Shown here piece after piece: positions 2,922 to 56,840 of a stretch of DNA of 64,000 nucleotides. The notes beneath the pieces were generated by a model. The model saw nothing but the letters and a program-made list of their open reading frames with translations. It did not search any database and was not told the origin of the DNA. Each line of letters begins with the position of its first letter. Within the stretch, counting starts at the first letter, position 1. The position numbers were made by a program, and so were the translations under genes. Origin of the DNA: Cantharellus purpuraceus (Eukaryota; Basidiomycota; Agaricomycetes; Cantharellales; Hydnaceae); NCBI GenBank assembly GCA_025174535.1, contig JALBUN010000009.1:558001-622000 (forward strand), in the 5' to 3' direction.

Positions 2922-4180
2922 ACAGTGTTTGCAACCATCTTGGGGACATTCATCAGTCAGGTCATGCAGCAAGGGGACTGCAATGCCCCCTCAACATTTC
3001 AGCAGCTCATGACTGCCATCTTCTGAGAATATATCAGAAGATTTGTCCATGTATATCTGGACAATATATTTGTGTACTCTTGTACTATACAAGAGCATGA
3101 ACACCACCTAGAGATGGTGTTCACTGAGCTCAGGAAAGCACATATGTTCCTGAGCAAGGATAAGATCGATCTATACTCAATGAGTATGGATTGCCTTGGT
3201 CACCTAATAGATGACCAAGGCATGCACACAGACACTGATAAAATGCAGCGAATACGAGAATGGAGACAACCTAGGTCATACCACAAAGTCCAACATTTTC
3301 TTGGACTAGTGCAGTATCTGGCACACTACATGCCAGATATAACTGCATACACAACCCCGTTATTGGGTTGTGCTCATAATAATCATCCATTCTTATGGAC
3401 GCCACTGCTGGAAAAATGCTTTGACAGCATCAAGCTTCTAGCATGTAGGGCTCCAATATTGAAGCCCATCAATGTCAATAACCCTGATACTATTTGGGTT
3501 ATTACTGATGGCTCCAAAACTGGAGTCGGAGCTGTCTATGGACAAAGAAAAGATTGGCAGACCTGTTGGCCTGCTGGATTCCTATCCAAGAAATTTAGTG
3601 CTGCACAACAGCACTATAAGACCCACAAGCATGAGACTATAGCTGTACTTGAAGCCCTAATGGGATGGGAAGATAAGCTACTAGGATGAAAGTTCATCCT
3701 AGTAACTGACCACAAGGGTCTCAAATACTTCGAGACCCAAAAGAACCTGTCTCCTAGACAGATTAGGTGGTGGGAGTTCTTATCCGTTTCAACCTCACCA
3801 CCCTGCATATAGACAGGGTAGAGAATAAAGTAGTGGATTGTCTATCATGCTACTATGCTGATGACTCCCCAACAGAGAGTCATCCCAGCTACATCTACGT
3901 GGGCACAGATGTATGTCTCGACCCTGAAGGAGAACTGCTCCCCATGGAATGGTCCATCAAGATCAGGACAGCAGCAGTCACCCAAAGGCAACTGCTCGAG
4001 AAAAAGGAAAACAGAGTGCTAGAAGCTGAAGCACTCAATGTTCAAACAGAATCATTGAATGATGATTCTAATTCCTCTAAAGAAATAGAGGATGTTGGAG
4101 TGATGTCATCAAATGATGACGGAACACCATTGCGATCTCATGTCAAGCATGGGATCAACCTTGTGCAGATTGTATGAGGC
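2922..4180 (+). pseudogene. E1 pol fragment: RT C-terminal part and RNase H
   Basis: Ty3/gypsy polymerase fragment entered in mid reverse transcriptase (GTFISQVMQQG) because A0 is inserted upstream. The catalytic box reads YLDNIFVYS near 3056-3082, with the second Asp changed to Asn. It continues through the connection domain (MDCLGHLIDDQGMHTDTDKM, REWRQPRSYHKVQHFLGLVQ) into RNase H (VITDGSKTGVGAVYG, then HYKTHKHETIAVLEAL). A TGA at about 3687 and several frame changes break it, and the rest reads VTDHKGLKYFETQ. Inactive. The copy at 22475-23308 plus 32440-32635 is its close relative. The DNA carries many short perfect hairpins (see findings). Confidence 0.85.
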
Positions 4181-4259
4181 ACATATAGAAAGGATACCGT
4201 CCTTTCTAAGGTGCTGGAAGCACCTAAAGAGCACGCATGATTTGGTGTGCATGATGGTC

Positions 4260-5600
4260 TAATATGGACCAAAAATATATACAAACACAATGTCATCTGT
4301 ATACCCCACTCAGTGTTCCTGAAGGGGAGGAGGCTGGTTGAGATGATAATTGACCATGTGCACCAAGTAGTTGGCCATTTTGGTCAACTAAAGACTGCAA
4401 ATTACATTTGACGGTTGTACTGGTGGCCAGGCATGACCACCAATGTCAAATCATTCTGCACTTCATGCATGAAGTGCCAAATGAATAAAGACAGTACGAA
4501 GAAACCCACAGGGCTTCTTCATAGCTTGCCAGTACCAGAGCGGCCCTGGCAATCGATAGGTATGGACTTTATGGGTCCATTACCAAAATCAAATGACTAT
4601 GACTACCTACTGGTAGTCATTGATCGCTTCATGTCGCAGGTACATATAATACCTACGAACACGCATGTAACAGTGAAAGGAGTAGCATGACTTCACAGTG
4701 TACCAGACTCGATTGTGTCTGATCGAGATTTGAAATTCACGTCTATCTTTTGGCATGAACTACAGTGGATAATGGGAGTGAAACTCCTCATGTCCACAGC
4801 ATTCCATCTGCAAACAGATGGAGCAACGGAACAAGCAAATCGTTCCATTGGCCAAATACTTCGTACTGTTGTATGAAGTGATCAGAAAGATTGGGCACAC
4901 AAGTGTCCAATGGTGGAGTTTGTGCTAAACTCCAACATAAGCTCTACAATGGGGTTTACTCCGTTTGAACTTAACCATGTATATGCCTAGGATAGGCATG
5001 CCCATTAACAATGACACCAAGTTCAAGGGTGTCAAATGATTTGCACAGCAGGCCCAAATGAACCTGCTAGCGGTGCATGATGCAATTATAGAAAGTCACG
5101 TCATTCAGACATTTCATGCCAATAAGAAATGTTGGGAAGGTCCAACCTTCCAGAGAGGTGACAAAGAACTTGACTCTACCTAAGGGTAGAACCAGCAAAC
5201 TAGTGCCCAGGCATATTGGGCCCTATAAAATAATCAAAGCCTATAATAAAGCTTTGATGGTGACACTGGAACTGCCACCAGAACTGACTAGTAGGCCTAT
5301 TATGCCTATGTTCCATGTCAGTCTCATTCAACCATATGTGCCAAATGATGAGATGAGATTCCCAAAACAGGAAGCGAAGTCATTTTACGACTTTGGGAAC
5401 GACAATGAGCAGAAGTGGCTTGTCAATGAAATCATTGCTCATTGATGGATAAGCGATAAAGAACTTGAAATTCAAGTTCTATGGACATTGGGAGATGTCA
5501 CCTGGGAACCTTACACATCGTGTAAGGACCTAGAAGCTCTAGATGATTATTTAGAGCTTCAAGGGGTGATTCAAGCGCAAGAACTACCTCATAGACAGTA
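4260..5600 (+). pseudogene. E1 pol fragment: integrase and chromodomain-like tail
   Basis: Integrase of the same gypsy element. The zinc-binding end is visible as CTSCMKCQMNK, followed by the first catalytic Asp in GMDFMGPLPK (about 4561) and the second in SDRDLKFTS (about 4719). A region reads DGATEQANRS around the expected catalytic Glu. The C-terminal GPYKIIKAYNKALMVTLELP motif leads into WLVNEIIAH...EIQVLW...VTWEP, a chromodomain-like module ending near 5560. Stops at 4688, 4875 and elsewhere and a frame change near 4985 make it non-functional. Integrases with such tails direct insertion to modified histones in chromoviruses (family knowledge). Confidence 0.82.
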
Positions 5601-5870
5601 GTTCTCAGAGAGACAGAGCCCCAAAGATCTAATGGGGCTCAAAGGGAAGAAGTGGAGCTACCAAGAATAAAGGTAGCTCCTAGCAGGATGTGACAAGAGC
5701 TATCATCAATGATGGTAGCTCAATGAGGGGAGGAGGAACCACCTCAACTAATGGTAGTTCCTAGATAAGGATAGAGCTACCATAACAACAGGCAGCTTGA
5801 TGGCAGAAAAAAAAACTGCTCCCATAGGGAGCAGTTCACCGTCATGCTACTCATAGTAGCATGAAAGGGG
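5580..5870 (+). other. E1 run of consecutive stem-loops between pol and ORF3
   Basis: Seven or eight stem-loops follow one another in under 300 bp: GAACTAC/GTAGTTC near 5580-5605, GAGCCCC/GGGGCTC near 5617-5642, GGAGCTACC/GGTAGCTCC (5654-5680), GAGCTATCATC/GATGGTAGCTC near 5697, an imperfect GGAACCACC/GGTAGTTCC, AACTGCTCCC/GGGAGCAGTT with a 3-nt loop (5814-5836) and TCATGCTACT/AGTAGCATGA (5842-5864). E2 has the mirrored cluster at 29020-29225 and 30058-30120. No ORF is convincing here, so it may be an intergenic RNA element of the transposon. Confidence 0.8.
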
Positions 5871-5969
5871 TAAGCGATAATTAATCACATTACACCCATG
5901 TGACATAGTCACTGGAAAATTCTCAATAAAGAATTTTCAAGCTCACCCATAAAAGGCTAGCAGTGTTTC

Positions 5970-7772
5970 TTTGAGATGACCTGGAAAATTGGCAGATGGC
6001 ATGGTGGCACTGCCATCCATCACCCTCAACAAGTGCAACGCATATGTGTCACACGGCTGACTACATCTTTCCACCGAAGCGGTGGAAAGAGCATTAAGAG
6101 TCACATGGCTGCGACTTATACATGACATCAAAGATGATGTTGCGACACCTTATTGTGAAGACTACAATAAGATGTACAAGGACAACTTGGACCTGTTTGC
6201 GCAGGTCCAAGAACTTGAAGGACTTCTCAACAATGAGAAGTCCGAAGTAACTCGTCTCAGAGATGAGTTAAAAACACTGAAGGAGGCTGCTGACAGAGCA
6301 CCTCCTACATTCAAGACCAAGCTCACGATGGTGTGCTTGGCCCCAGTAGCATCACTATCGTGTGCTACGGCAGGCAAATCATTGCCTACCATTATGTCAT
6401 CACAGCCTGTGGCTTCATCATCACAGGAAACAATTGACCTCACCAAAGAGGATGATCTCCTGGGCAAATTACCTCAGGTCAACCCTCAAGGGTTTGAAGG
6501 TCAAGATTGGGATGATACCAACCCAATCTGGGAAGGATACGACCACGATCGTGGTCTCCTCCTGGCTAGCATCCCCAAGGGTGCTAAGCCACCGGGCAAA
6601 CTCAAAGAGTTTGCCCTATCAGAAATTGAAGCTGAGATTGATCAGCTTCAAAAGGAGTATATGGCTGGTGACACCAGCTGTACTTTAAAAGACCCAGCAT
6701 TGAAGATGCTGGAGGAAGCCCAGTGTACAAATTACCGCAAACACTGGGACGATTTTGGGCATGCCCTCAAGCATGCCAATGTGGGGAAATCATTCCCCAA
6801 ATGGGCACCATGGTTCATGACTGTGGCTGACCCTCCCAGAGCAGTCACTGGCCACCTGCTGTGACCTCTGGGCAAGTCCGCCCCTATCAGGGCAGACTGG
6901 TTCGACATCTGTGATATGGACACTCTGGAGTTCATATCGCTCCATAAAAAAGCATTGGCCACACCGTTTGCAGAACGGACTGTACCGATGTGCAGAGTCA
7001 TCAAGAGAATGACTCTGCTGGCTCATGCTGATAATGCGAGTCTTATCATCACTCTACCAACCACACTGGTAGACACACTTGCCCTCATATGGGGGTGGCA
7101 AGTGAACCCTAATGGGGTCCCCCCAGCCATCTGACAGGAGTCAGATGGTACTATGAACTTGTCTGATGTGGACGTCTGGATGTGGCTACAGAAGGCCACT
7201 CCCAAGAAGGGTTCTTCTGTATTTAAGAAGAACCTCTGAACTGCGTTCCAGAATCCTGGCCACTGGGGGTTATTGACCAGTGGTCAAAAGTTCTCACCAA
7301 CTATTGGTGACACCTTTCACGCTCCAGTCACTGGAGCATATGATTGGGGGAATCACTCCCCCAAAGAACATACTGAATTAGAGCTTGTGCTCTGGTTTGG
7401 ACGATTGGGGGCATCACCCCTGATTGCACTGCTATATTAGAGGAGTTTGCTAAACGCATCGCCTCCGGAGCAGCATTTAACCAGCCCACCAGGGTTGGTA
7501 AGCGAAAGCAGGAGACTCAGGGTGTCTCCCAAGCAGCTCATAAAGCTGCTAAATGCTCTCTTGCTGAGCGTTTAGGTCATGATCAACTCAATCATGAACT
7601 TGATCAGGATGCTGCAGTAGCAATTGCATCCTCCTCATCCATTCAAGTGGATGAGGATACTGCAACCATGTTGGGGATGACTGAGAGCTGTCCCCCTCTG
7701 GAGCCATATGAACAAGATGATCATATGGACACCAACTCATCAGAACAGCTTCATAAGGAGCTGTATGATTAA
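5970..7772 (+). pseudogene. E1 ORF3, extra sense ORF downstream of pol
   Basis: A third ORF on the same strand as pol, between pol and the 3' LTR. It opens with EMTWKIGRWHGGTAIHHP (about 5973), runs through a coiled-coil stretch (LDLFAQVQELEGLLNNEKSE, 6190-6245), a Ser/Thr-rich linker and a conserved body (EYMAGDTSCTLKDPALKMLE; DVDVWMWLQKATPKKGSSVF; SPKEHTELELVLW). It ends at LSEQLHKELYD with TAA at 7770-7772. Stops near 6862, 7132 and 7237 and at least one frameshift break it. The copy in E2 (25655-29006, minus) shares the domain order. I do not recognise the family. It occupies the position of env in errantiviruses but shows no signal peptide or membrane segment. Confidence 0.7.
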
Positions 7773-7815
7773 AAGGTACTGAATGAGATTGTGCCTCATT
7801 CAAAAAAGGGGAAGG

Positions 7816-8092
7816 TGTAAGTACCCAAGGTACTTACTTACTATAGTATGTAGCTAGATAGTTATAATTAGTGTATGCAGCATTTCATTAAGGGATGCTG
7901 TCTTCTTGATAGATATATGCACCCTATGGGTGCATATGTATAGTTATTATGTAAGCCAGTGGACCCAAGTACACGTGTGGGTCCACTTATAGTAGAAAAA
8001 ACTTAGTAACTACCACACTGTACAGCACATCGCCCAACCAATACACTTGGTTGAGTTCTGTGCAACAGTGTGAACTAAGACACCCTTTAACA
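7816..8092 (+). repeat. 3' LTR of E1
   Basis: LTR of 277 bp from TGTAAGTACC to CTTTAACA, immediately preceded by a polypurine tract (7802-7815, AAAAAAGGGGAAGG) as expected for a 3' LTR. It contains the hairpins AAGTACC/GGTACTT at its start, ATATGCACCC/GGGTGCATAT (7915-7937) and AGTGGACCC/GGGTCCACT (7958-7987). It matches 25338-25615 and 55338-56840. The 88 bp that follow (8093-8180) are unclassified. Confidence 0.85.
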
Positions 8093-8180
8093 AACATGTA
8101 CCCCATGACTCATAGACCAGTAGTCAATAGAACTACTGGTATGAAAAACACAGGAAGCCAACCCACACCCCATGGACATG

Positions 8181-8678
8181 TGTTATGACTATATTCATTA
8201 ACGACCAGATTCCTGTCCGATCCACTCAGATCCCTGCGCATATGAAATCTATACTCCATTTGGAAACCGCCACGTCTCCATTACCTGTCTGATTGTCACT
8301 GCTGATCCCGCCCATCCGTCTCCGGTTCCAATTGATGCATCAGCATCACCATAGGAACCCAGACATCCATCCCTGTCAGACTTGGACATACTCATGTAAG
8401 GCCTTCAGCCTTGGAGACCCATCACCGAGTAATTATTATTAGATTTCAAATATGTATTTAAGTTGCCTGACTGGGGACTTTATTCCCCAGTTCGAATATT
8501 GAATCACACCTAGTTCCTAAGTCTGATCCTAAATCTCAGACACTGGTATTAGTGAGGGCGCAGCACATAAGCTGAAGCCAAGTCTGTTCCAACCCCCACG
8601 ACGTACCCGACTCCTTCTCCGACTCCGACTAAACCTCCGATCCAGTCTCTGACCCCCAATTGGACCTAGTGCATAACA
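8181..8678 (+). repeat. 5' LTR of A2
   Basis: Family A LTR, 498 bp, TGTTATGACTATATTC to TAGTGCATAACA, with TATTTAAG near 8455 and the hairpin-plus-start motif near 8465-8500 (here CAGTTCGAATAT, one change from the others). Directly after it at 8679-8694 comes the self-complementary primer site ATATTCAAACTG. Confidence 0.9.
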
Positions 8679-8710
8679 GTATATTCAAACTGCCATACTC
8701 ACTCCTACCA

Positions 8711-18455: not shown

Positions 18456-18966
18456 TGTTATGACTATATTCATTAACGACCAGATCCCCATCCGATCCAC
18501 TCAGATCCCCACGCATATGAAATCTATACTCCATTTGGAAACCACTACATCTCCATTTACCTGTCCAATTGTCACCGCCGATTCCGCCCATCTGCCTCCA
18601 GTTCCGATTGATGCATCAGCATCACCATAGGAACCCAGACATCTGTCCCCGTCGGCCTCAGAGACCCATCACCGGAGTAATTATTATTAGATTTCAAATA
18701 TGTATTAAGTTGCCTGACTGGGGACTTCATTCCCCAGTTTGAATATCGAATCACGCCTAGCTCCTAAGTCCAATCCTAACTCTCTAAAGTCATACTCCGT
18801 CTCCAAAATCTCGGACACCAGTATTAGTGAGGGCGCAGCACATAAGCTGAAGCCAAGTCCGTTCCGACCCCCACGACGTACTCCAACCCCAACCCAACCT
18901 CCAACCCTAACTCCGACCCAACCTCCGATCCAATCTCCAACCCCCAATTGGACCTAGTGCGTAACA
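18456..18966 (+). repeat. Internal LTR of A2
   Basis: Family A LTR of 511 bp in the position of a normal 3' LTR, preceded by the 3' internal end GGCCTTAAATGGAGAGATAC. Its right flank is a second piece of antisense ORF, not a duplicated target site. Confidence 0.88.
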
Positions 18967-19797: not shown

Positions 19798-19802
19798 ACA
19801 TG

Positions 19803-20301
19803 CATACATGGGTCCCAATATGCACTCATGACAAGTGAGTGCACCAAGGCCAGAACCCCATAGTGGTGGCTCCAGATTCAATACCAACAATTTCCCTCTT
19901 AAGGGTAATTATCAATTGAAACCACCAACACATGTGAGTGGTGATTGATCAAACAATGTTACTAGTAATGTTGTGTGCTACAAATGTGGCCAGACAGGTC
20001 ACATGCAACCTAGCTGCCCCAAATTAAAGGGCAATGTAAGGTTGGCAGCAGTCCAAAAGGACATGCCCTCACACATAGTGGAGGACAATGTAGATGGGTT
20101 CTCCCCAATAGAGGGAGAGCATGAAGAAGCAATGGATGATCCCAAGGATCATCTAGAGGAGAAAATGCCAGCTATAGATATAGCTGACAAATGGAATGAA
20201 GAAATTGCCCCATATGAATGGGATGATCAGGATGATGCCCCTAAAGAGGAGGTGATGCCAATGTATTGCTCCAATGTGATACAGATTCAATGCAATGATT
20301 G
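19803..20301 (+). pseudogene. E2 gag C-terminal part with CCHC knuckle
   Basis: End of the family E gag. The single knuckle CYKCGQTGHMQPSC is at about 19976-20017, followed by an acidic stretch (DNVDGFSPIEGEHEEAMDDP, EEIAPYEWDDQDDAPKEEV) ending at TGA about 20300. Only about 170 bp precede the knuckle, so most of gag is gone. It shares the dense hairpins of E1, for example TGCACTCA/TGAGTGCA near 19819-19845 and GATGATCC/GGATCATC near 20136-20154. Confidence 0.75.
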
Positions 20302-20842
20302 AGTCTCACCAAACATGCCTATGCAGTGTGTTTCTGTAATGTGAAAGGATTCCTGACAAGCAGGGAATCACAACAGCTGCATGTAGCTTCTGTCAGCATT
20401 GACAAATCAGCTGAACCTATGTATAATCATAGGAGCCAACAGAAGTCAACAGCATGATCTGATAGGCCATGCATCAATAATAAAACAATCTCTGGATACT
20501 GGGAGATTGGTGGGACTCTTGCTCACTGTCTATTAGACAGTGGGAGTGAAGGGATAATGATACCCCCTGAATTCACATGTGTGACAGGTATGAAAACCTT
20601 TGCACTGGAGCAACCCATTGCACTGCAGCTAGCATGTGTAGGGAGCAGGAGTACCATAAACTATGGTACTCACACTACCATAAGATTTGGTAGCCAAGAC
20701 ATCAAAGAATACTTCAATGTCACTAATGTTGAGTATTACAATGTAATACTTGGTACTCCATTCCTACAAAAGTTAGGAATATGCCTGGACTTTAATGGCC
20801 CAGGTCAAATCATGATGGGAACTGAAATGAAGAGCATGATAT
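20302..20842 (+). pseudogene. E2 gypsy protease region
   Basis: Retroviral-type aspartic protease: LLDSGSEGIMIPPEF with the catalytic Asp-Ser-Gly near 20530-20550, then NVILGTPFLQKLGICLDFNG near the end. Stops between 20302 and 20556 separate it from gag. Perfect hairpins include GATTCCTG/CAGGAATC (20348-20368), CACTGTCTA/TAGACAGTG near 20525-20543 and GAGTACCATA/TATGGTACTC (20649-20671). Confidence 0.78.
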
Positions 20843-21017
20843 AGATGCTCTGTGTACCCTATCACGGGGTACAAACTCCCTGCAAAAAGGGAGTAGTGGT
20901 GTGAGTAGATGATGCCAAGGGGGTAACTCAAAGCATGAGCTACCTACAACACAGTCCTTCCCAAAAGAAGGACTATATTCAGTAAAGGATCCCCCAACAG
21001 AGGATCCAACTAAGAGC

Positions 21018-21951
21018 ATGAGGCAAATAGCATCATCATGTGAAGGGTCAACCACATACATGGCTGATCAGATACCTCAGTTGAGGGATCAATGGAAAGA
21101 AAAGTATGCTGACCTATTTGGTAGCATCCCCCTAGAACATCCCCCATTCAGGGAAGTTAATCATGAGATTAATCTTGTGGATCCCAACAAGCAAATACAT
21201 TATTGCTTGCCTAAATACCCTGAGCACTATTGACACTTGGGATGATGCTGTTATACAATATTCTGATGTATATGAGATGTACATCAGAATATATGAGATA
21301 TACATCAGAATTTTAATAATGATAATAAAAATAGGGAGTTACAATCTGGATATCTTAAATTTTTATAAATATAAATATATATTTCATATTTTAATAAACT
21401 TTAAAAGATAAGATGTTTGTTATAGATGAATATAATTATTTATATGAATATAATAGTAATGTATATATTAATATTATTGGTATAATATAGAATATTTAGA
21501 TATACAAATACCAGGTGGGGATTCAAGGTACATTAAATTATTTGACCAGTATAGTATAAGAAAGAATGAGTGAAAGAAATTAAGTGTAGTAGGAGTAGAA
21601 TATTCCCTGGAAGCAGTTGCCACCAGTAAATGAAAAAAAATATATATATTTTTGAGAATCATGTATGAAATATCAAAATATGTTTTAATATAAGTATATT
21701 ATGTAAAATTTGAGGAAATGGGTTGTATATACATATTTGATGTATTTCTGAACAAGCATCATTGGGCAGAACTTTCAGAGAAAGTTCTGTGCTACACCAC
21801 TGCCAAATGGTGGGTACTGGCTACAGCCTGACAGGCTGTACCTATGCTATGTATTCCCAAGAAAAATGGGAAAGTCCATACTGTATTTGACTTGCATGAA
21901 CAGAATGACAATACAGTGAAGGATGTAACACCCTTCCCCAATCAGGATAAC
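21018..21951 (+). pseudogene. E2 reverse transcriptase N-terminal part, split by a MITE
   Basis: Start of RT: ADLFGSIPLEHPPFREVNHE, LPKYPEHY, then after the MITE (21232-21760) WAELSEKVLCYTTAKWW, PMLCIPKKNGKVHTVFDLHE and DNTVKDVTPFPNQD. The reading frame joins exactly when the MITE and one 3-bp duplication are removed. It continues after the solo LTR at 21952-22474. Confidence 0.8.
21232..21760 (-). mobile_element. AT-rich MITE, copy 1
   Basis: A 529-bp AT-rich, non-coding insertion flanked by ATT (21229-21231 and 21761-21763). It matches copy 2 (in pieces 40411-40419 and 48271-48867) in opposite orientation. One end is GATGCTTGTTCAGAAATAC; the other is degraded compared with copy 2, where the inverted ends GAYGYTTGTTCRGAA can be seen. 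A 3-bp duplication fits CACTA or PIF/Harbinger-type DNA transposons; the superfamily is uncertain. Confidence 0.7.
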
Positions 21952-22474: not shown

Positions 22475-23308
22475 ATAACATCAGGCATGATGTTGCCCAC
22501 TGTACATATTGATCTAAGTTTGATATCTCTGAGGTGTATGAACAAATACATGTCAGGCCAGTGGATACACCCAAGATGGCCTTTGCAACTGTCTTGGGGA
22601 CATTTGTCAGCCAAGTTATGCAGCAAGGGTACTGTAAAGCCCCTTGACATTCCAGCAGCTTATGACTGCCATCTTCCAAGAATATATCAGAAGATTCATG
22701 CATGTATATTTGGACAACATATTCGTGTGCTCTCATACTATATGAGAGCATGAACACCACCTCAAAATGGTGTTCACTGAGCTCAGGAAAGCACATATGT
22801 TCCTGAGCAAGGATAAGATTGATCTATACTTAACGAATATGGATTGCCTTGGTCACCTAATGGATGACCAAGGCATGCACACAGACACTGATAAAATGCA
22901 GTGAATACAAGAGTGGAGACAACCTAGGTCATACCACAAAGTCCAATGATTCCTTGGACTAGTGCAGTATCTGGCACACTACATGTCAGATATAACTGCA
23001 TACACAACCCCATTGTCAGGTTGTGCTTATAATAATCATCCATTTTTATGGATGCCGCTGCTGGATAAATGCTTCAAAAGCATTAAGCTTCTAGTGTGCA
23101 GGGCTCCAATATTGAAGCCCATCAATGTTAATAACCCTGATACTACCTGGGTTATTACAGATGGCTCTAAGACTGGAGTTGGAGCTGTCTGTGGACAAGG
23201 GAAAGACTGGCAGACCTGTCAGCCTGCTGGATTCCTTTCCAAGAAGTTTAGTGCTGCTGTGCAGCACTATAAGACTCATGAGCATGAGACTATAGCCTTG
23301 CTCAAAGC
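22475..23308 (+). pseudogene. E2 RT C-terminal part and RNase H start
   Basis: Continues RT: TPKMAFATVLGTFVSQVMQQ, a catalytic box reading YLDN(I/T)FV, then MDCLGHL, HYMSDITAYTTPLSGCAYNN and RNase H WVITDGSKTGVGAVCGQGKD. It stops at HETIALLKA where D1 is inserted (23309). The next codons are found inverted at 32635 going down (ALMKWEDKLLG), which gives ETIALLKALMKWEDKLLG in one frame, as in E1. Several stops make it inactive. Confidence 0.85.
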
Positions 23309-25337: not shown

Positions 25338-25615
25338 TGTAAGGTTGGACTTAGTTCACACCAACACAGAACTCAACCAAGTTATATTAGTTGTGCTATG
25401 TGCAACAGTGGTGTGGTAAAATCTAAGTGTGTTCTAACTACATGTGGACCCACATGTATACTTGGGCCCACTTGATTATATAATAACTATATGTATGCAC
25501 CCTATGGGTGCATATATCTACCAAGAAAAGCAGTACTCCTTAAGGGAATGCTGTATATACTAATATTAATATCTATATATTATTTTATAGTAAGTAAGTA
25601 CCTAGGGTACTTACA
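25338..25615 (-). repeat. 3' LTR of E2 (inverted segment)
   Basis: 278-bp E LTR, TGTAAGTACCCTAGG to CCAACCTTACA on the minus strand, preceded by a polypurine tract (AAAAAGGGGAGGG, complement of 25616-25628). Same hairpins as the E1 LTR. Confidence 0.85.
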
Positions 25616-25654
25616 CCCTCCCCTTTTTGAATGAGGCATGACCTCATTCACCAC

Positions 25655-26440
25655 TCAATCATACAGCACCTTATGGAGCTGTTCAGACAAATCAGTGTCC
25701 ATATGATCATCTTGATCATATGACTCTGGAAGGGAATGGCTCTCAGTCATCCCCAACATCATCATAGTATCCTCACCCACTTGGATGGATGAGGAGTAGG
25801 CAACTGCTAATGTGGTGTCTTGGTCAAGGTCACAATCTAGCTGATCATGACCCAAATGCTCAGCAAGGGAGCATTTAACAGCTTTATGGGCTGCTCAAGA
25901 GGCTCCTTGAGTCTCTTGCTTTTCCTTACCAACCCTGGTGGGTTGGTTGAATGCTTCTCCAGAGGCAATGTGACTAGCAAATGCCTCCAGGATAGCAGCA
26001 CGATTGGGGGTGATGCCTCCTGTTTGCCCAAGCCAGAGTGTGAGTTCTAGCTCGGTATGCTCTTTGGGGGAACGATCCCCCCAATTATACACTTCTGAAA
26101 TAGAAGCACAGAAAGTGTCACCACTAGTGGGTGAAAACTTATGGCCACTGGTTAATCCTTCCCAGTGGTTGGGAGTCTGGAGCAAAGTCCAGAGGTTCTT
26201 CCTGAATACAGAAGAACCTTTTTTAGGAGCAGCCTTATAGAGCCACATCCAAACATCTACATTGTAGAGGTTCATAGTGCCATCTGACTCCTGTCAGATG
26301 GCTGGGGGCACCCCATGGGGGTTCACTTGCCACCCTTGTATGAGGGCAAGTGTATCTACCAGTGTAGTCAGTAGAGTGACAATGAGGCTCACATTATCAG
26401 TGTGAGCAGAGTCATTCTCTTGATGATTCTATGCATTGGT
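25655..26440 (-). pseudogene. E2 ORF3, C-terminal part
   Basis: Minus-strand continuation of the ORF3 that starts at 29006. It includes LYNVDVWMWLYKAAPKKGSS, SPTSGDTFCASISEVYNWGD, SPKEHTELELTLWLGQTGG and AAILEAFASHIASGEAFNQP, ending DLSEQLHKVLYD at 25655. It is cleaner than in E1, with only a few frame breaks near 25840-25895. The B unit at 26446 separates it from the N-terminal part. Function unknown. Confidence 0.68.
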
Positions 26441-26445
26441 ACCAT

Positions 26446-27848
26446 TGACGAGCAAGGACGCATCGAGGATGTATATCGAACCACTCTGACAGTCCAACTC
26501 CGCCAGCGTCTTTTCATATCAAACTTTTAAATAGCGCCGCAACTCTCTCTCTACCTCAGTCTCTAATTCTAGCCATCGATCGTCACTCATGTTTCATCGC
26601 CATCGATCATTATCAGCCTTCGATTCACACCAATCCTTTCATCATCATTCACATGGCTTCCAATTCTATTCCCCTCTCCAACATCTCTTCTAATAATACA
26701 TCACACTGGTCTCTGGACACAGAGGACTATCAAAAATATGCCGAGCTCCACGGGCATGTTAAGCCACCTCCACATGTCAAAATACTTCCAAAACTCTTTC
26801 AACATCCAAGATCCCCACCATGTCTCTCTTATGCCATTGGCAATCCCATATTCTTTCACAATTCCGTTGAACCATATACATTCCTCGGCATTTTGCCTCT
26901 ATATCGTAACACAGATAGAAGAGTCAAACGTGAGGTAGAATTTCAGTCACCATCGCTGACCTATCCTCCCACTTCAATCCGACTCAGGTTACATCGTGTC
27001 AGGCAAAGGGACCGAATACCCTTGGAACGGGATACCATATGGAGACGTATCACTAAGACAATAAGGAGTATTTGTTGTGGATGCTGACTGAAGTCCTCAT
27101 GTGACTCAGGGTCAATTTACCTTCAGAGCCGTAGGGAAGATGGTATTGGTGGATGTTTCTATTGTTCTTTTATATGACTCACCCCTGTTTCATCTTTTAA
27201 TTCATTCATACATGACTTACTCATTCTATTTTTGGTTCTTTTATTACTCATCACCCCCTATTCTTACAAAGATTACCCCTATCTGTCACTTCATTTCTCC
27301 AAGATTTCCCCATTAGTAGTTCAACTTCACATGCTTCGTCAGCTGGCTTGATCAGCATTTCTTGCATCATATCACATCATTTGCTCCTTATATTGTGTCA
27401 TTGTGCCCTGGGGGTTTGTATATAAAAGGGCGCTAGTTTTCACCTTTGGGATCAATCAACAAGTTTTCAGCCAACGCTCTAAAGTCAAAGTCCACACTCT
27501 ACATCACAATCCATAGCTCTACACTGAGGTAAAGTACCTTGGTTCAATGATCAGATTTCCCTCCACCACCGAGAGGTCACATCTCCTGAAACCAGCTTTC
27601 GCATACCTCCCAACCGGGCTCCCCATTGTCATCCAGTCACAGAGCACAATCAACCATCTGGACCGTCCCTTTTCGCTCCCCACCCTCCTCCAACCACAGA
27701 GCACTATTACACTTTCCTGTTACTCAGTGCTACCCCTACCCCTTGACCTGATTGTTCTTTGGTGTGCTGAACAACTGCGTTACACACCGTCTGTTTGCTA
27801 GGACTGTTGCACGCAGGCTTATAGGATCTATTCCATAAGTGAACCGAC
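26446..27848 (+). repeat. Family B solo LTR, complete, inserted in E2 ORF3
   Basis: 1,403-bp B unit, TGACGAGCAAGGACGC to GAACCGAC, flanked by ACCAT (26441-26445) and ACCGT (27849-27853), the same duplication with one G-to-A change. TATATAAAAGGGCG near 27420-27433. Confidence 0.82.
26653..27087 (+). CDS. Small conserved ORF inside B LTR (copy ii), unknown
   Basis: The longest intact form, 144 aa, starting at the shared Met (MASNSIPLSNISSNNTSHWS) and ending TIRSICCGC. Middle motifs are PRSPPCLSYAIGNPIFFHNS and EPYTFLGILPLYRNTDRRVK. Rich in Ser, Pro, Tyr and Arg, no signal peptide, no membrane segment, no domain I recognise. It lies in the U3-like part of a solo LTR, so any transcript would come from outside the element's own TATA box, which is about 340 bp downstream. 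Confidence 0.42.
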   Translation: MASNSIPLSNISSNNTSHWSLDTEDYQKYAELHGHVKPPPHVKILPKLFQHPRSPPCLSYAIGNPIFFHNSVEPYTFLGILPLYRNTDRRVKREVEFQSPSLTYPPTSIRLRLHRVRQRDRIPLERDTIWRRITKTIRSICCGC

Positions 27849-27853
27849 ACCGT

Positions 27854-29006
27854 TCATTCAGCAAACAGCATGGCCAATGCTTTCTTGTGTAGTGATATGA
27901 ACTCAGGAATGTCTGTATCACATATGTCAAACTAGTCCACCCTGATAGGGATGGACTTACCTAGGGGTCAAGGCAGGTGACCAGTGACCATTCTGGGCAG
28001 GTCAGCTGTGGTCATAAACCATGGTGCCCACTTAGGGAATGGCTTCCCTGCATTGGCATGCTTAAGAGCATGCCTGAAGTCATCCCAGTGTTTGCAATAG
28101 TTCACACACTGGGCTTCCTCTAGCATTTTCAATGCTGGATCTTTTAAAGTACAGCTGGTGTCACCAGCCATGTACTCCTTATGAAGCTGACCAATCTCAG
28201 CTTTGATTTCTGATAGGACAAACTCTTTGAGTTTGCCTGGTTCTTAGCGCCCTTGGGGATGCTAGCCAGGAGGAGACCACAATCGTGGGCATAATCCTCC
28301 CATATCAGGTCCATATTGTCCCATTCTTGACCCTCAAGCTCTCAAGGGTCAATCTGAGGTGGTTCACTGGGTGATCATCCTCTTTAGTGAGGTTGATCAC
28401 CTGTGATGATGATGCCATGGGTTGAGATGATTTAATGGCAGGCAATGATTTGCCTGCCATAGTGCATGATGATGACCCTACTGGAGCCAAGCCCACTGTT
28501 GTGAGCTTGGTCTTGAATGTAAGAGGTGCTTTAGCTGCAGCCTCCTTGAGTAATTTTAACTCATCCTTAAGATGAGTTACCTCACATTTCTCCTGTTCAA
28601 GAAATCCTTCAACTTCTCAAACCTGTATGAACAGGTTTGAGTTGTCCTTGAACAGCTTATCATAATCCTTACAATGAGCACTAGTGACACCATCTTCAAT
28701 GTCATGAATCAACCGCAGCCATGCGGTTCTCAAGGCTCTCTCCATTGAAGCAGTGGAGAGGTATAATCAGCTCCCTTTCTAAGCCTCAATTAAGTGTGAG
28801 ACATAGTCATCGCACTTTTTGCACCCATGAGGGTGATAGATGGCAGTGCCTCTGTGCCATCCACTAATCTTCCAGGTCATCTCATCTTGATGACCTTGGA
28901 TCATTTCTGCAGCACTCATTACAGGTGCCACGGATGTGGAAGATTGTTCAGCTTCCATTGGATGCTCATCTTGAGCATCTATCATCTCCCTTCTGGGAGA
29001 TGACAT
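27854..29006 (-). pseudogene. E2 ORF3, N-terminal part
   Basis: ORF3 start, chosen at the Met of MSSPRREMIDAQDEHPMEAE because it follows the hairpin cluster and no stop intervenes until 28779. Then EMTWKISGWHRGTAIYHPHG with CKKCDDYVSHLIEA, a small His/Cys motif (H-P-H-G-C-x2-C) that could bind metal. After a stop the coiled-coil and linker follow (ESLRVKNGTIW, about 28305), then MAGDTSCTLKDPALKMLEEA (28171 down). A relative of this N-terminus is at 57114-57271. Stops and frame changes disable the copy. Confidence 0.66.
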
Positions 29007-29230
29007 TTTTGTGCTACCATGAGTAGCATGAAGATAAGCTGCTCCCTATGGGAGCAGTTTTCACTGCTATTGAGCTGCCTATTATCATGGCAGCTCTATT
29101 CCCTCTAGGAACTACCATTATTCATGGTAGTTCCTCCTCTCCTTGTTGAGCTACCATCATTGATGGTGGCTCCTTATCATGTTCTGCTAGGAGCTACTGT
29201 TATCCTTGGTAGCTCCATTTCTCCCCCCTT

Positions 29231-30052
29231 TGTCAAGAATTTATTCAAGTAATATTACAATCTATTGGAGCAAGAAGGGGGAGTTTTATGATAAGGAAAA
29301 GTTGTGAAAAGTTTGGGAATTTTTTGATTAAGGGATGAGGAGGAGGTGATTTTCGATTTTATTTTGTGAGCCATCCTTTCGTTCTACGGGGGTGGCTACT
29401 ATTCAAAAAGGGAGGTATTATGATGATTTTCATTTGTCATAAACCTCAAGTCAAACGGGTAAAAACTCCTCTCTCTATAAAAAGTTTTTCCCCATGACAT
29501 CACATATTATCAGTATCCACATCATTTCTTTTATCATATGTCAATCTTACTAAAAGGTTTTTTTATCATGTGATTGTCAAATTGTATATTAACTACAACT
29601 GTGTACGAGTATCAACAAGGAGATTCACTATTCTCAATCCCTTCCAAGCTGCAAACAAACAGCTTGTGTCAACTTTCTGTCGTTCCTGGAATAACTCCTA
29701 AACGACCTATTCAATTTGAAATCTTTTGCATATCCCATTAGGATATTGCATCAACTATTGCTATCTCAAATTACGAACGATTTGGATCATTAAATCCATT
29801 TCTATTAAGCAAGCACTTTTTTGAAGTGTTGCTATTCCCATTTCTGCTCAAATATTTTGCAGAAGTCCCAGTTCTTAACCAAATATTCTGATATTTGGTA
29901 ACATCACTCTACTAAACAACACCTTTCCATCGACCCCGCATATATTTGCATCCTTACAGTAATTGCTCCCCTATTCAAAAATCTACTTCGCCACCATCCC
30001 TCACCTTCATCTTACACTCACCCACAACACCCCTCCATATCTTTTCTTAACA
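29231..30052 (+). repeat. Family F solo LTR
   Basis: 822-bp insertion, TGTCAAGAATTTATTC to TTCTTAACA, with perfect duplication CCCTT (29226-29230 and 30053-30057), between the hairpin cluster and the chromodomain region of E2. It contains a CTCTATAAAAAG box near 29473 and an AT-rich tail. It matches F2 (56095-56746). No coding. Confidence 0.85.
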
Positions 30053-30266
30053 CCCTTGAGCCCCATCAGATCTTTGGGGCTCCACCTCTCTGAGAACTAC
30101 TGTCTATGAGGTAGTTCTCATGCTCGAGTCACCCCTCAAAGCTCTAAATAATCATCTAGAGCTTCCAGATCCTTATACAACATGTAAGGTTCCTAAGTGA
30201 CATCTCCCAACATCCATAGAACTTGAAATTCAAGTTCTCTATCACTTATCCATCAATGAGCAATGA

Positions 30267-30830
30267 TGTTCAGGGCTGGGAAACTTGGAGTTCAATGGAA
30301 TAACTGGAGTTCGGCTGCTAGTGAAGAAGGGGAGGGGACTTTACTGTTCCAGTTCAACCAGAGACAGAATGGGACAATAACTATTGAGTCAGATCGAGTG
30401 GACTTGGCTTCAACTTGTGTGTTGCACCCCCTCGGATCGTCGGTCCAATATTTTGGAGTTCAGAGTACAGAGTTGGATCAAGGATCCAGAGTTCAACTTG
30501 TCAAGAAAGTACTTGTCAAGAAGCTGGCAACCAAGAAGTTGATAGGGCAAATCTTAGTCAATACAAACTACTATAATAGACAGAGAGTAGCCCATATAAG
30601 TATATAGAGAATTGAATGATAAAACTAAAAGCGATAAGACAATAAGATGGATATGGAGTACAACACAGAAAGGAGTTTGGAGTTTGGACCCAAGTCCAAA
30701 CTAAAAGAAGAAGGTTTGTTGTAACCTATAAGAAGAAACTACTTATAAGGAGAACAATAATGGAGTTCAGGGTTGACAGAGGTAAAGTTGATGGAGAATG
30801 GAGATGGACTTGGTGTTACAGGATGTAACA
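30267..30830 (+). repeat. Family G solo LTR
   Basis: 564 bp, TGTTCAGGGCTGGG to CAGGATGTAACA, with perfect duplication AATGA (30262-30266 and 30831-30835), in the chromodomain-like tail of E2 pol. Relatives: 55379-55974 and about 40033-40169. Confidence 0.88.
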
Positions 30831-30835
30831 AATGA

Positions 30836-32635
30836 TTTCATTGATGAGCCATCCCTGCTCATCATTGTTCCCAAAGTCATAAAATGTCTTTGCTTCCCAT
30901 TTTGGGAATCTGGCCTCGTCATTCAACACATGTGGTCAAATGAGACTGACATGGAATGTAGGTGTAATGTGCCTACTAGTCAGCTCTGGTAGCAATTCCA
31001 GTGTCACCATCAAAGCCTTATTATGGGCTTCAAGTATCTTATAGGGCCCAATAAATTTAAGCACTAACTTGCTGGCTCTACCCTTGAGTGGAATCAAGTT
31101 TTTTGTTGAGAGATAGACCTTGTCACCTCTCTGGAAGGTTGGACCTTCATGATGTTTCTTATTAGCATGAAACATCTGGCTGACACAACTTTCTATGATT
31201 GTGTCATGTGCTACTGGTGGGTTCATTTGAGCCTGCTGTGCAAATTGTTTGACACCCTTGAATTTGGTGTCATTATTCATGGGTATGCCTATTATAGGCA
31301 TATACCCATAGTTAACCTCAAATGGAGTAAACCCTGCTGTTGAGCTTATATTGGAGTTTAATGCAAACTCTACCATTGGACACTTATGTGTCCAATCTTT
31401 CTGATCACTTCATATGACTGTATGAAGTATTTGACCAATGGAATGATTCACTCATTCCATCACTCCATCTGTTTGTGGATGGAATGCTGTGGACATGAGG
31501 AGCTTCACTCCCATGATCCATTGTAGTTCACACCAAAAGATTGATATGAACTTTGAGTCTCAATCAGACATGATCAAGTCTGGTACACTGTGAAGGTGTG
31601 CAACTTCTCTAAGGAATAGCCATGCTACTCCTTTCACTGTCACATGCATATTTATAGGTATTATATGTACCTGCAATGTGAAGTGATCTATGACTACCAG
31701 TAGGTAGTCATGGTCATTCAATTTTGGTAATGGGCCCATAAAGTCCATTCCTATCAATTGCCAGGGCTGCTCTGGCACTGGCAGACTGTGAAGAAGCCCT
31801 ATGGGTTTCTTCATATGGTCTTTATTCATTTGGCACTTCATGCATGAAGCACAGAATGATTCAACATCAGTGGCCATGCCTGGCCACTAGTTCAACCTTT
31901 GAATATAATTTGCAGTCTTCAGTTGACCTTACTTGGCATGCATGGTTGATTATTATCTTGACCAGCCTCCTCCCCTTCAGAAATGCTGAATGGGGTATAC
32001 AGATGACATTGTGTCTGTATATATTTTTGGTCCATATTAGACTATCACACACCGAATCATGTGTGATTTTTAGGTCCTTTCACCTTAGAAAGTAGTATCC
32101 TTTCTATATGCACCTCATACAATCTGCACAAGGTTGATCCCATGTTCAATGTGGGATTGTAATGGTGTTCCATCATCATTAGATGACATCACCTTGATGT
32201 CCTCTATTTCTTTATAGGACTTAGAATCATCATTCAATGATTCTGCTTGAACATTGAGTGTTTCAGCTTCTAGCACTCTGTTCTCTTTTCTCTCAAGCAG
32301 TCACCTTTGGGTGACTGCTGCTGTTCTGATCTCAATGAACCATTCCATAGGGAGCAGTTCTCCTTTGGGGTTGAGACATACATCTGCACTCACATAGATT
32401 TAGCTGGGATGACTCTCTGTTGGAGAGTCATCAACATAGTAGCATGACAAACAGTCTGCTACTTTGTTCTCTACCCTGTCTATATGCAGGGTAGTGAAGT
32501 TGAAACAGGATCCCACCACCTAACCTGTCTAGGAGACAGATTCTTCTGGGTCTCAAAGTATTTGAGACCTTTGTGGTTGGTTACTAGGATGAACTTTCAT
32601 CCTAGTAGTTTGTCTTCCCATTTCATTAGGGCTTT
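30836..32635 (-). pseudogene. E2 integrase and RNase H end (inverted segment)
   Basis: Minus-strand continuation of pol from 32635 downward: RNase H end (ALMKWEDKLL, VTNHKGLKYFETQKNLSPRQ), linker, then integrase with CASCMKCQMNKD (about 31845), catalytic GMDFMGPLPKLNDHDYLLVV (about 31745), PDLIMSD at the second Asp (about 31565, followed by TGA), and the C-terminal MVEFALNSNISSTAGFTPFE to GPYKILEAHNKALMVTLELL (31376-30936). The chromodomain tail continues below 30267 past G1. Stops and frame changes throughout. It only makes sense as the continuation of 22475-23308 if 25137-32635 is flipped. Confidence 0.85.
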
Positions 32636-55337: not shown

Positions 55338-55378
55338 ACTGAGCACAGAACTCAACCAAGCTATACTGGTTGGGTGAT

Positions 55379-55974
55379 TGTTAAGTGCTGGAAATGGAGT
55401 TCAAGGGAGTAACCAGAGTTTGGATGCTAGAGTCAAATGGGAGGGGACTTTACTGTTCCAGTTCAACTGGAGACAGGGCAGTGCAATAACTATTGAGTCA
55501 GATCAAGTGGACTTGGCTTCAACTTATGTGTTGCACCCCCTTGGATCATCAGTCCAATATTTCAGAGTTTGGAGGTATGGAGTTGGATCAGGGATCCAGA
55601 GTTTGACTTGTCAAGAAGTCACTTGTCAAGAAGCTAGCAACCAAGAAGATGATGGGGTTGAACTTGATTGATATACCAACTACTGTAACATACAGAGAAT
55701 AGCCCATATAAGTATACAAAGAATTGAATGAGAAACTGGAGTAGGAGAACAATAGGGTGGATATGGGATACAATATGAAAAGGAGTTCAGAGTTCAGACT
55801 CAAGTCCAAACTATAACTAATCAATATAAAAGATGAAGGTTATTGTAACCCATAGCAAGGAAACTACTTATCAAGAACACAATAATGGAGTTCAGGGTTG
55901 TTGGACATGGAGTTGTCAGACATGGAGATGGAGATGGAGTCCAGAGATCAGACTCAGTGTTACAGGATGTGACA
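55379..55974 (+). repeat. G2, family G solo LTR
   Basis: 596 bp, TGTTAAGTGCTGG to CAGGATGTGACA. Flanks GTGAT and GTGCT differ at one base, so the duplication is probable, not certain. Confidence 0.75.
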
Positions 55975-56094
55975 GTGCTGTGATATACAGTGTGGTTTTG
56001 TCTAAGTTATCTCTCTATCTACATGTGGACCCACATGTATTTGGGTCCACTGATCATATAATAACTATACATGCACCCTATGGGTGCATATACC

Positions 56095-56746
56095 TGTTAG
56101 GTAAAAATAAGGAGGAGTGTGATGTGTGTAAGACAGGGGGTGAATGCTGAGTAGAAATCAAATAGGAGTATGATTGGGGTGCGGAGGATGATGTATGCAC
56201 AGTCATATGTTATATATATTTGAGTAGGATGTTGTCACCAAATTTCAGGTGACTCAGTTAAGAACTGGACGTTCTGCGAAATATTTAAGCAGAAATAGGG
56301 AACAGCAACACTTCAAGAAAGTGTTTGCTTAATAGAAATGGACCCGATGGTCAAAATCGTTCGTAATTTGAGATAGAACTAGAAGGTGCAATATCCTAAT
56401 GGGATATGCAAAAGATTTGAGATTGAATAAGTCGTTTAGGAGTTATTCCAGGAACGACAGAAAATTGACACAAGCTGTTTGTTTGCAGCTTGGAAGGGAT
56501 TAAAATCAGTGAATCCAATGTGATTATGGTACGTAGCTATACACATAATATAAATTTTAATAATCACATGGAAAATGATTCATAAATGATACAGAGAATT
56601 AAGGAGGGCTCACAGAATAAAATCGAAAATGACCTCCTCCCCATCCCTTAACCAGAATCCCTAATCTTTTCACACCTTTCTCTTATCATACATCTCTCCC
56701 CTCTTACTCCAGTAAGTCATGATAATTCTCGAGTGAATTCTTGACA
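56095..56746 (-). repeat. F2, family F solo LTR
   Basis: 652 bp, on the minus strand TGTCAAGAATTCACTC to CTAACA, perfect duplication ATACC (56090-56094 and 56747-56751). Shorter than F1 by internal gaps. Confidence 0.82.
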
Positions 56747-56840
56747 ATACCTACCAACAAAGCAGCATTCCTTAAGGGAATGGTGTATATACTTATATGT
56801 ATAATTATATTACAGTAAGTAAGTACCTAGGGTACTTACA

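What the first reader, a model, noticed from the sequence alone, without database searches (positions are those of the whole stretch)
2922..8092. Family E retrotransposon is saturated with short perfect hairpins along coding and LTR sequence
In 5.2 kb of E1 I found about 20 stems of 8-12 perfect bp with loops of 0-12 nt, plus many of 6-7 bp. Examples: 3192-3222 (11 bp), 3679-3704 (12 bp, 2-nt loop), 4458-4477 (20-bp palindrome), 4803-4822, 4914-4934, 5654-5680, 5814-5836, 5842-5864, 6066-6090, 6149-6171, 6186-6211, 6220-6243, 6594-6616, 6627-6650, 6992-7018, 7210-7234, 7344-7364, 7915-7937, 7958-7987. For random DNA an 8-bp perfect stem with about ten allowed loop lengths is expected about once per 6-7 kb. 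Family A, of similar size and also gypsy, has almost none. E2 shows the same (20348-20368, 20649-20671). The stems ignore reading frame, so they constrain codon choice over the whole element. Possible causes: selection for an ordered genomic RNA (packaging, protection from silencing), or a mutational process that perfects near-palindromes by template switching.
Basis: seen in the sequence. Interest (0 to 1): 0.88.

Follow-up and report, generated by a model that had tools for sequence, protein, structure and literature searches.

The report
Retrotransposon built from short perfect hairpins
One family of fungal jumping genes carries a short, perfectly matched DNA/RNA hairpin about every 50 bases through its genes and its ends, far more than the other families sampled in the same genome, as if it had to code for proteins and for a chain of hairpins at once.

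Summary
E1 (2922-8092) has 45 perfect stems of at least 8 bp (loop 0-12) against 0.9 in 30 dinucleotide shuffles; its open coding pieces have 24 against 1.6 in 100 codon-preserving shuffles. Over 22 rows, 97 helices cover 43% of E1, one per 53 nt, LTR included. Related subfamilies have them; family A, 12 copia loci and 4 other chromovirus loci lie at or near background. No wobble or strand preference was found, by weak tests. Nearly all of the excess lies at spans of 16-30 nt. Copies decay independently (both arms varied 83 times, 81.6 expected). Between lineages, stems change less than other sites (9/431 against 80/1584, p=0.008), with modest covariation (14 pairing-preserving double changes, slid controls 1-6). 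Six hairpins have loops in both orientations, a mark of template switching in hairpins that really form, but rare. Best reading: the element selects a chain of local hairpins, largely through synonymous codons; its purpose is inferred. A hairpin-making mutational process is not excluded.

The parts
2922..8092 (+). E1: 5'-truncated copy of the hairpin-rich Ty3/gypsy element (from RT to the 3' LTR); 97 helices of 7 or more majority pairs over 22 rows
3027..3686 (+). open piece: end of RT, RNase H
   Evidence: Pfam RVT_1, RT_RNaseH_2, RT_RNaseH
4412..4687 (+). open piece: integrase zinc-binding H2C2 and what follows
   Evidence: Pfam Integrase_H2C2
5092..5442 (+). open piece: Tf2-1-like SH3 domain of integrase; chromodomain-like residues follow in another frame (by eye, recalled motif)
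   Evidence: Pfam SH3_Tf2-1
5443..6060 (+). tail of pol and 3' spacer; 12 helices, 19.4 per kb, mean stem 9.0 bp
6061..7769 (+). extra coding region between pol and the 3' LTR; no Pfam family in three open pieces; coiled coil predicted at residues 5-79 of the first piece
7816..8092 (+). 3' LTR, 277 bp, TG...CA; hairpins at 7817-7837, 7878-7900, 7915-7937, 7958-7987, 8035-8053
3596..3616 (+). hairpin whose loop is inverted (one mismatch) in the copy at 22582-23296 (there 23249-23269)
3973..3996 (+). hairpin with loop TGAA/CGAA/CAAA in most copies, TTCA in L009 and L015
4983..4999 (+). hairpin with loop GAA or TTC; TTC occurs in E (L024, L046) and in E' (L049)
6066..6090 (+). hairpin; E1 has the loop inverted against the other copies (AAG, others CTT or its decay)
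7817..7837 (+). LTR hairpin; loop CAA, TTG in L027
7915..7937 (+). LTR hairpin; E1 alone has the loop inverted (TAT, others ATA or its decay)
19801..21165 (.). E2: fragment matching the 5' part of E-type elements, 7 stems of 8 bp or more (strand not determined)
22582..23296 (+). further E fragment (RT/RNase H), 88.5% identical to E1
25350..32634 (-). E': related copy, 79-88% identical to E1 by piece, interrupted by another repeat (about 26440-27850); most hairpins shared
55375..56840 (.). E-type fragments, in mixed orientation, with LTR-like hairpins

Best explanation
E is a Ty3/gypsy-type LTR retrotransposon whose active lineage was under selection, at the nucleotide level and over its whole length, to keep a chain of short local perfect hairpins (stems mostly 7-12 bp, loops 0-11 nt, total span about 16-30 nt, about one per 53 nt). 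In coding parts the hairpins are made largely by choice of synonymous codons. Shown: the excess, its near absence from the other families sampled here, the sharing of most stem positions between subfamilies, slower change in stems than in loops or flanks, and loop flips that imply the hairpins form in vivo. Inferred: that the benefit is local, quickly formed folding of the element's own nucleic acid (genomic RNA and/or single-stranded cDNA), which would favour packaging and keep the strand from pairing with antisense RNA, small RNAs or distant parts of itself. The lack of a wobble preference suggests, weakly, that the helix must also work on the minus strand or as DNA.
For: Excess against dinucleotide and codon shuffles and against permuted alignment columns (97 helices against 7-19 in 6 permutations). 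Near background in family A, 12 copia loci and 4 other chromovirus loci. Of 76 E helices testable in the window's E' copy 52 lose at most one pair, 15 two, 9 more; L045 16, 9, 1 of 26; the L011 tail 11, 9, 2 of 22; L046 53, 7, 2 of 62. Of 40 stems of 8 bp or more in that E' copy, 38 map to E and 30 of them lose at most one pair in the E majority. Polarised over 1.65 kb: stem 9/431 against 80/1584 elsewhere, OR 0.40, p=0.0076; without CpG 5/411 against 58/1502, OR 0.31, p=0.0072. Non-CpG double changes that keep pairing, E majority against four other copies: 14, against 1-6 for partners slid by 1-3 (summed). 3' spacer, raw: E' 5/135 stem sites changed against 27/121 outside and 8/42 in loops; L045 8/138 against 53/228 and 11/51; LTR end, E' 11/122 against 33/148 and 7/33. 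RT/RNase H residues in arms equal the majority residue of 120 homologues as often as outside (0.78 and 0.78 against 0.72). E1 MFE z -4.0 against MS2 -3.05 and Qbeta -2.85. 72% of predicted pairs in E1 span at most 31 nt, against 50-52% in those phages and 40-47% in the three control elements folded.
Against: The polarised test is small (9 stem changes), its halves alone are marginal (p=0.031 and 0.058; without CpG 0.157 and 0.025), the same sites enter both halves on different branches, it lies mostly in pol, where protein constraint also acts, and one copy (L045) polarises it. With strict majority strings only 9 of 15 E stems (4 of the other 6 lie where E' is undefined) and 9 of 18 E' stems have a same-centre stem of 7 bp or more in the other lineage. 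The spacer and LTR counts are raw: E-branch breaks are left out of stems by definition, which inflates the contrast. Among copies of E there is no covariation. No G-U tolerance was found, though that count has little power (MS2 7:3, Qbeta 5:5), and sense/antisense energies depend strongly on base composition (family A and L042 differ by 12 kcal per 150 nt either way). The E' copy's z (-2.74) is not below that of the phages. Stem length falls as loop length rises (rho -0.36, n=97; -0.21, not significant, in 47 perfect helices of 8 bp or more), the opposite of a simple free-energy threshold. No expression or probing data exist here.
Confidence: 0.5

Rival explanations
1. Mutational origin: the element's reverse transcriptase (or host polymerases) switched template between near-palindromic arms within a window of about 30 nt and perfected them; protein selection removed the harmful events. 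The hairpins need no function.
For: Loop inversions, a known footprint of such switching, occur: reverse-complement loop pairs at 9 of 96 loops (5 exact) against 0, 2, 1 and 0 for four other transforms; with three fewer copies, 8 against 0-2 in 20 control draws outside helices. Six are convincing by eye. Perfection without wobble preference, symmetry of strands and a sharp span limit suit a mechanical process. The 14 pairing-preserving double changes between lineages are also what arm homogenisation would give. Two published cases link switching with perfect inverted repeats in coding DNA (PMC8604942: abstract and passages read; PMC6649704: abstract and discussion read).
Against: Homogenisation without selection predicts change in stems at the neutral rate, nearly all as paired changes; stems change less, and in the E' copy 9 paired changes stand beside 57 unpaired single ones outside CpG (many of the single ones will be decay of that copy). 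Full flips are rare: 6 hairpins among 1331 loop copies, against roughly one substitution per hairpin and copy (my reckoning from the stem divergence). The scan of 96 loops gave no flip that separates E from E'. Residues in arms are not less typical than outside.
Confidence: 0.27
2. Selection on DNA rather than RNA: the hairpins or cruciforms serve in cDNA or integrated DNA, for example as structures bound by an element protein (possibly the extra ORF) or as chromatin or replication signals.
For: No G-U over A-C excess; sense and antisense folding equal (E1 z -4.00 and -4.02; sense less stable than antisense by 1.8 +- 1.0 kcal per 150 nt, whereas MS2 and Qbeta are more stable in sense by 3.2 +- 1.5 and 3.2 +- 1.4). 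Loop flips point to hairpins in DNA.
Against: Loops are A-rich on the sense strand (A 0.37-0.385 against 0.31-0.33 outside), as in many folded RNAs (recalled). A common motif of the arms was not tested.
Confidence: 0.15
3. Ordinary: the count reflects composition, dispersed hairpin insertions or counting rules.
For: One other repeat in the window does carry one hairpin copied many times (ACTGGGG...CCCCAGT), and two controls slightly exceed their shuffles.
Against: Dinucleotide, codon and column controls; the same rule gives near-background counts in 3 family A copies, 12 copia loci and 4 chromovirus loci; E stems differ in sequence and sit inside conserved RT, RNase H and integrase codons.
Confidence: 0.02

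Closest known systems
Ty3/gypsy (Metaviridae-type) chromoviruses of fungi
   Same: CCHC knuckle, protease, RT, RNase H, integrase with Tf2-1-like SH3, TG...CA LTRs; Ty3_capsid below cut-off
   Different: extra coding region 3' of pol without a Pfam match; hairpin density some ten times or more that of the other families sampled in this genome
Genome-scale ordered RNA structure; single-stranded RNA phages MS2 and Qbeta (measured here)
   Same: folding energy far below shuffles along the genome
   Different: E1 has 8.7 perfect stems of 8 bp or more per kb against 0.84 and 1.42; pairs more local; equal on both strands
Coding palindromes in nematomorph mitochondrial genes (PMC6649704; abstract and discussion read)
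   Same: many perfect inverted repeats inside conserved protein-coding sequence, all-or-none identity, no clear function
   Different: those reach 284 bp and come and go between species; here spans stay near or below 30 nt and most positions are shared between subfamilies; here they are in a retroelement and its LTR
Template switching at short inverted repeats (PMC8604942: abstract and passages; PMC8794818: abstract and start of the introduction)
   Same: inversion of short loops between perfect arms, including recurrent flips
   Different: the events described there are scattered over genes; here a whole element is saturated and arms change less than their surroundings
Ty3 genomic RNA structure in yeast (PMC11381356: abstract and passages)
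   Same: LTR retrotransposon RNA with local stable folds
   Different: well-folded core reported as about 20% of Ty3 RNA; E helices alone cover 43% of E1 (not the same measure)

Membership tests
Ty3/gypsy chromovirus | RT and RNase H of the Ty3/gypsy type | tested here: met
   RVT_1, RT_RNaseH_2, RT_RNaseH above cut-off
Ty3/gypsy chromovirus | gag capsid, CCHC knuckle and aspartic protease upstream | tested here: met
   zf-CCHC and RVP_2 above cut-off in L011; Ty3_capsid only below cut-off (25.8 against 29.1 bits in L011)
Ty3/gypsy chromovirus | integrase after RT/RNase H with C-terminal SH3 and chromodomain | tested here: inconclusive
   Integrase_H2C2 and SH3_Tf2-1 met; chromodomain seen by eye only, its frame was not searched
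Ty3/gypsy chromovirus | LTRs beginning TG and ending CA | tested here: met
   277-bp LTR at 7816-8092, found in other copies; end of a 5' LTR in L023
Genome-scale ordered RNA structure | folding energy well below shuffles along the genome | tested here: met
   E1 mean z -4.0 over 34 windows, E' -2.7 over 24
Genome-scale ordered RNA structure | structure specific to the RNA strand (wobble tolerance, sense more stable) | tested here: inconclusive
   sense and antisense equal; no G-U excess over A-C; low power, shown by the phage yardsticks
Genome-scale ordered RNA structure | covariation among relatives | tested here: inconclusive
   none among copies (83 against 81.6); modest between lineages (14 against 1-6)
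Template-switch (quasipalindrome) correction | inversion of the loop between intact arms | tested here: met
Template-switch (quasipalindrome) correction | arm homogenisation: stem change at neutral rate, as paired changes | tested here: not met
   stems slower than surroundings; paired changes a minority
Nematomorph-type coding palindromes | long perfect repeats with frequent gain and loss | tested here: not met
   excess nearly all at spans up to about 30 nt; most positions shared between E and E'

The most novel reading that the evidence does not exclude
A whole retrotransposon lineage carries a second, genome-wide nucleotide code: a selected, strand-symmetric chain of perfect Watson-Crick hairpins limited to about 30 nt, written through synonymous codons and the LTR alike, which the element needs on both its RNA and its cDNA strand.
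Probability: 0.35. Interest if true: 0.9.

Novelty: new variant of a known kind. Interest (0 to 1): 0.8.

Why it matters
Codon choice in a mobile element is usually read as translation or mutation bias. Here it appears to be shaped by hairpin pairing over the stretch of about 5 kb studied and, by stem counts in copies, over the 5' part too. If selection is right, the element offers a natural, extreme test of what local structure buys a retroelement (packaging, cDNA synthesis, escape from antisense or small RNAs). If a mutational process made it, the polymerase behind it is an unusual hairpin maker.

Tried and rejected
Covariation between copies: looked promising (60 alternative Watson-Crick pair types), but with CpG-prone sites set aside only 17 alternative pair types remain, 3 of them double changes; double variants equal expectation (CpG pairs 40 against 41.9; all 83 against 81.6). 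Rejected as evidence.

First conservation test (stem 16/652 against 98/1258): I later found that L045 is a third lineage, not an E' copy, so those changes lie mostly on the E branch, where stems were defined; I replaced it by the polarised test and do not rest.

Loop-inversion list: 9 hairpins by rule. Of the 8 printed, 3679 and 5509 are CpG decay on inspection; 4597 was not printed; 3596, 3973, 4983, 6066, 7817 and 7915 stand. The complement transform also hit two of these (4983, 7915) because such short loops are nearly symmetric.

Codon phase of the arms (24, 21, 15 for the three phases): slight deficit of the 3-3 phase, not tested, not used.

IMG/VR scans for relatives' DNA: nothing. Structure of the extra ORF: coiled coil, otherwise low confidence (mean pLDDT 56); no fold search made. 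Ten paper searches, of which I saw listings only, some cut (25 of 69, 4 of 6, 12 of 53): none of the seven aimed at such elements listed a title or abstract start that reports one; the other three were for template switching, RNA phages and Ty1/Ty3 structure. The library lacks most subscription papers.


Full report
What was checked. The window is G000:C9:558001-622000 of an unnamed 40.2-Mb genome in 50 contigs. A fixed rule (perfect Watson-Crick stem, loop 0-12, three or more different bases per arm, no overlaps) finds 45 stems of at least 8 bp in E1 against a mean of 0.9 and a maximum of 3 in 30 dinucleotide shuffles, and 133 against 9.75 in the whole window (4 shuffles), concentrated in E-type stretches. 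Holding amino acids and codon usage fixed, nine open pieces of E1 keep 24 stems against 1.62 +- 1.17 (max 7). So the excess in coding parts is made largely by which synonymous codon stands where.

What the element is. E1 is a 5'-truncated, frameshifted copy. Open pieces match RT, RNase H, integrase H2C2 and Tf2-1-like SH3; 5' pieces of other copies match zf-CCHC and retroviral protease, and Ty3_capsid below cut-off. The LTR is 7816-8092, 277 bp, TG...CA; the end of what I take for a 5' LTR is seen in L023, giving an element of about 8 kb by my reckoning. Between pol and the 3' LTR lies an extra coding region (6061-7769) with no Pfam family, 10 database relatives of its first piece and a predicted coiled coil. 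A search with 609 bp of E1 lists 40 long matches in the genome, 39 of them 90-94% identical and one E1 itself; only 40 of 121 candidates were scored. A search with the integrase piece shows E-type matches (70-100%) and then a gap down to 43-47% among 150 scored of 870 candidates.

How far the trait goes. Stems of 8 bp or more per kb: E1 8.7, E' 7.3, E2 5.1, L046 7.0, L045 4.2 (L045 is partly not E); 5.8 over 127.6 kb of E-like sequence against 0.77 over 179 kb of the rest (the E-like mask wrongly takes in one nested repeat, 1-1280 and its copies, so both figures are approximate). Family A 0.23-0.68, 12 copia loci 0-1.07; four loci of other chromoviruses (44-47% integrase identity) have 2, 0, 0 and 2 stems. 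Two of these controls slightly exceed their own shuffles (family A 8176-12556, 3 against max 2; L032, 4 against max 3). It is thus, as far as sampled, a property of one clade here. The 5' part of the element is as dense in copies that have it (7-8 and 5-7 stems in the first and second kb of L011, L012, L013).

Anatomy. Pooling E1, 20 loci and the fragment at 22481-23300 (22 rows, few covering every site), 97 helices have 7 or more pairs that are Watson-Crick in at least half of the rows, one inner mismatch allowed, loop up to 12; 63 have 8 or more. Column permutation within 100-nt blocks gives 7-19 and 3-5 (6 permutations). They cover 43% of E1, centres 53 nt apart on average; density is 17 per kb in pol, 19 in the 3' spacer, 20 in the extra ORF, 22 in the 3' end with the LTR. 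Stem length falls as loops grow (rho -0.36, n=97; -0.21, not significant, in 47 perfect helices of 8 bp or more). Part of that must come from decay that opens inner pairs. 72% of predicted pairs in 1-kb folds of E1 span at most 31 nt (E' 65%, L046 70%), against 52% in MS2, 50% in Qbeta, 40-47% in the control elements folded (family A on both strands, L042, L035).

Strand and wobble. G-U and A-C departures show no G-U excess to speak of wherever counted: E1 1:1 and all 20 loci 11:21, copies 209:180, majority interior 10:6 and outer flank 15:19, single changes in four other copies 58:76 (summed), non-CpG 67:62 single-copy and 12:25 shared, E' stems read in E 15:13, L045 stems 6:8. Folding z of E1 is -4.00 in sense and -4.02 in antisense, of E' -2.74 and -2.87; MS2 -3.05 and -2.44, Qbeta -2.85 and -2.82; family A and L042 -0.3 to -0.7. 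E1's sense strand is not the more stable one (+1.8 +- 1.0 kcal per 150 nt; L046 +2.7 +- 1.3); MS2 and Qbeta are more stable in sense by 3.2. That last measure follows base composition (family A and L042 differ by 12 either way), and the wobble count has little power: by the same rule MS2 gives 7:3 and Qbeta 5:5. So sense-RNA specificity is unsupported, not excluded. Loops are A-rich on the sense strand (0.37-0.385 against 0.31-0.33 outside), which points the other way.

Evolution among copies. Copies differ by about 10% and decay independently: at paired sites both arms vary 83 times against 81.6 expected. Most seeming compensations are CpG sites facing each other in the two arms, each decaying on its own (40 against 41.9).

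Evolution among lineages. Ep (the E' copy of the window), L049 and L050 form E'; L045 is a third lineage. Of 76 E helices testable in Ep 52 lose at most one pair, 15 two, 9 more; of 38 mapped stems of Ep, 30 lose at most one in E, 7 two, 1 three; of 15 of L045, 11; of 7 of the L011 tail, 4. With strict majority strings over 1.65 kb, 9 of 15 E stems and 9 of 18 E' stems have a same-centre partner (4 E stems lie where E' is undefined). Using L045 to polarise, E-defined stems have 1 of 169 sites changed on the E' branch against 32 of 827 elsewhere (p=0.031), and E'-defined stems 8 of 262 on the E branch against 48 of 757 (p=0.058); without CpG p=0.157 and 0.025. Together 9/431 against 80/1584, p=0.0076, and without CpG 5/411 against 58/1502, p=0.0072; the pooling uses the same sites for two branches. 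Non-CpG sites changed on both arms with pairing kept number 9 in Ep, 2 in L045, 3 in the L011 tail and 0 in L046, in all 14, against 1-6 for partners slid by 1-3 columns; in Ep 57 single changes leave a mismatch, many of them surely its own decay. In the 3' spacer (raw) stems differ at 5 of 135 sites in Ep and 8 of 138 in L045 against 27/121 and 53/228 outside and 8/42 and 11/51 in loops; in the LTR end Ep 11/122 against 33/148 and 7/33. The residue typical of 120 homologues is kept in arms as often as outside, so the hairpins were not bought with unusual amino acids in RT/RNase H.

Loop flips. In 96 loops, pairs of copies whose loops are reverse complements (3 or more differences forward, at most 1 inverted) occur at 9 hairpins, 5 of them exact; four other transforms give 0, 2, 1 and 0 hairpins; with three fewer copies 8 hairpins are hit, against 0-2 in 20 draws of equal segments outside helices. 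By eye six stand (3596, 3973, 4983, 6066, 7817, 7915). At 4983 both orientations occur in E and in E'. Such inversions are a published footprint of template switching between short perfect arms in yeast (PMC8604942, passages read). They show that these stems do pair in vivo, most simply as DNA. Their rarity (6 hairpins among 1331 loop copies) against about one substitution per hairpin and copy (my reckoning) suggests that full arm-to-arm switching is too rare to keep the arms perfect; short partial switches would escape this count.

Conclusion. The trait is real, saturating, limited to one clade as far as sampled, and conserved more than its surroundings. I take selection for a chain of local hairpins as most likely (0.5), a mutational hairpin-making process filtered by protein selection as the main rival (0.27), and selection on DNA as a third (0.15). 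What the hairpins do is inference only. The paper searches made here (listings seen) showed no report of a retroelement of this sort.

Noticed in passing
6061-7769: Extra coding region 3' of pol with no Pfam match; 10 relatives of its first piece, all unnamed hypothetical proteins, coiled coil at its start. It could be tied to the hairpins, but that was not testable here.
   Followed up: partly
2564-2585, 8470-8491, 18717-18738, 19562-19583, 22238-22259, 23960-23983, 25220-25241, 33789-33812, 40633-40656, 47959-47983, 55112-55135, 57563-57586, 58770-58791, 59199-59220: One hairpin (ACTGGGGA..TCCCCAGT type) copied many times inside another dispersed repeat; differs from E, where hairpins differ in sequence.
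   Followed up: no
21258-21292, 48805-48835, L045 (reverse strand, 1671-1701 of the turned locus): Another repeat with an 11-14 bp hairpin of the ATTCTGATGTA type.
   Followed up: no
whole genome, E copies: Strong CpG decay: CpG sites facing each other in two hairpin arms decay independently and mimic compensatory change. In the 150 scored RT matches of the genome nearly all in-frame stops are TGA, as CGA to TGA decay would give.
   Followed up: partly
L016: An inverted pair of 883 bp at 100% identity beside an E copy, a sign of recent insertion or duplication around E copies.
   Followed up: no
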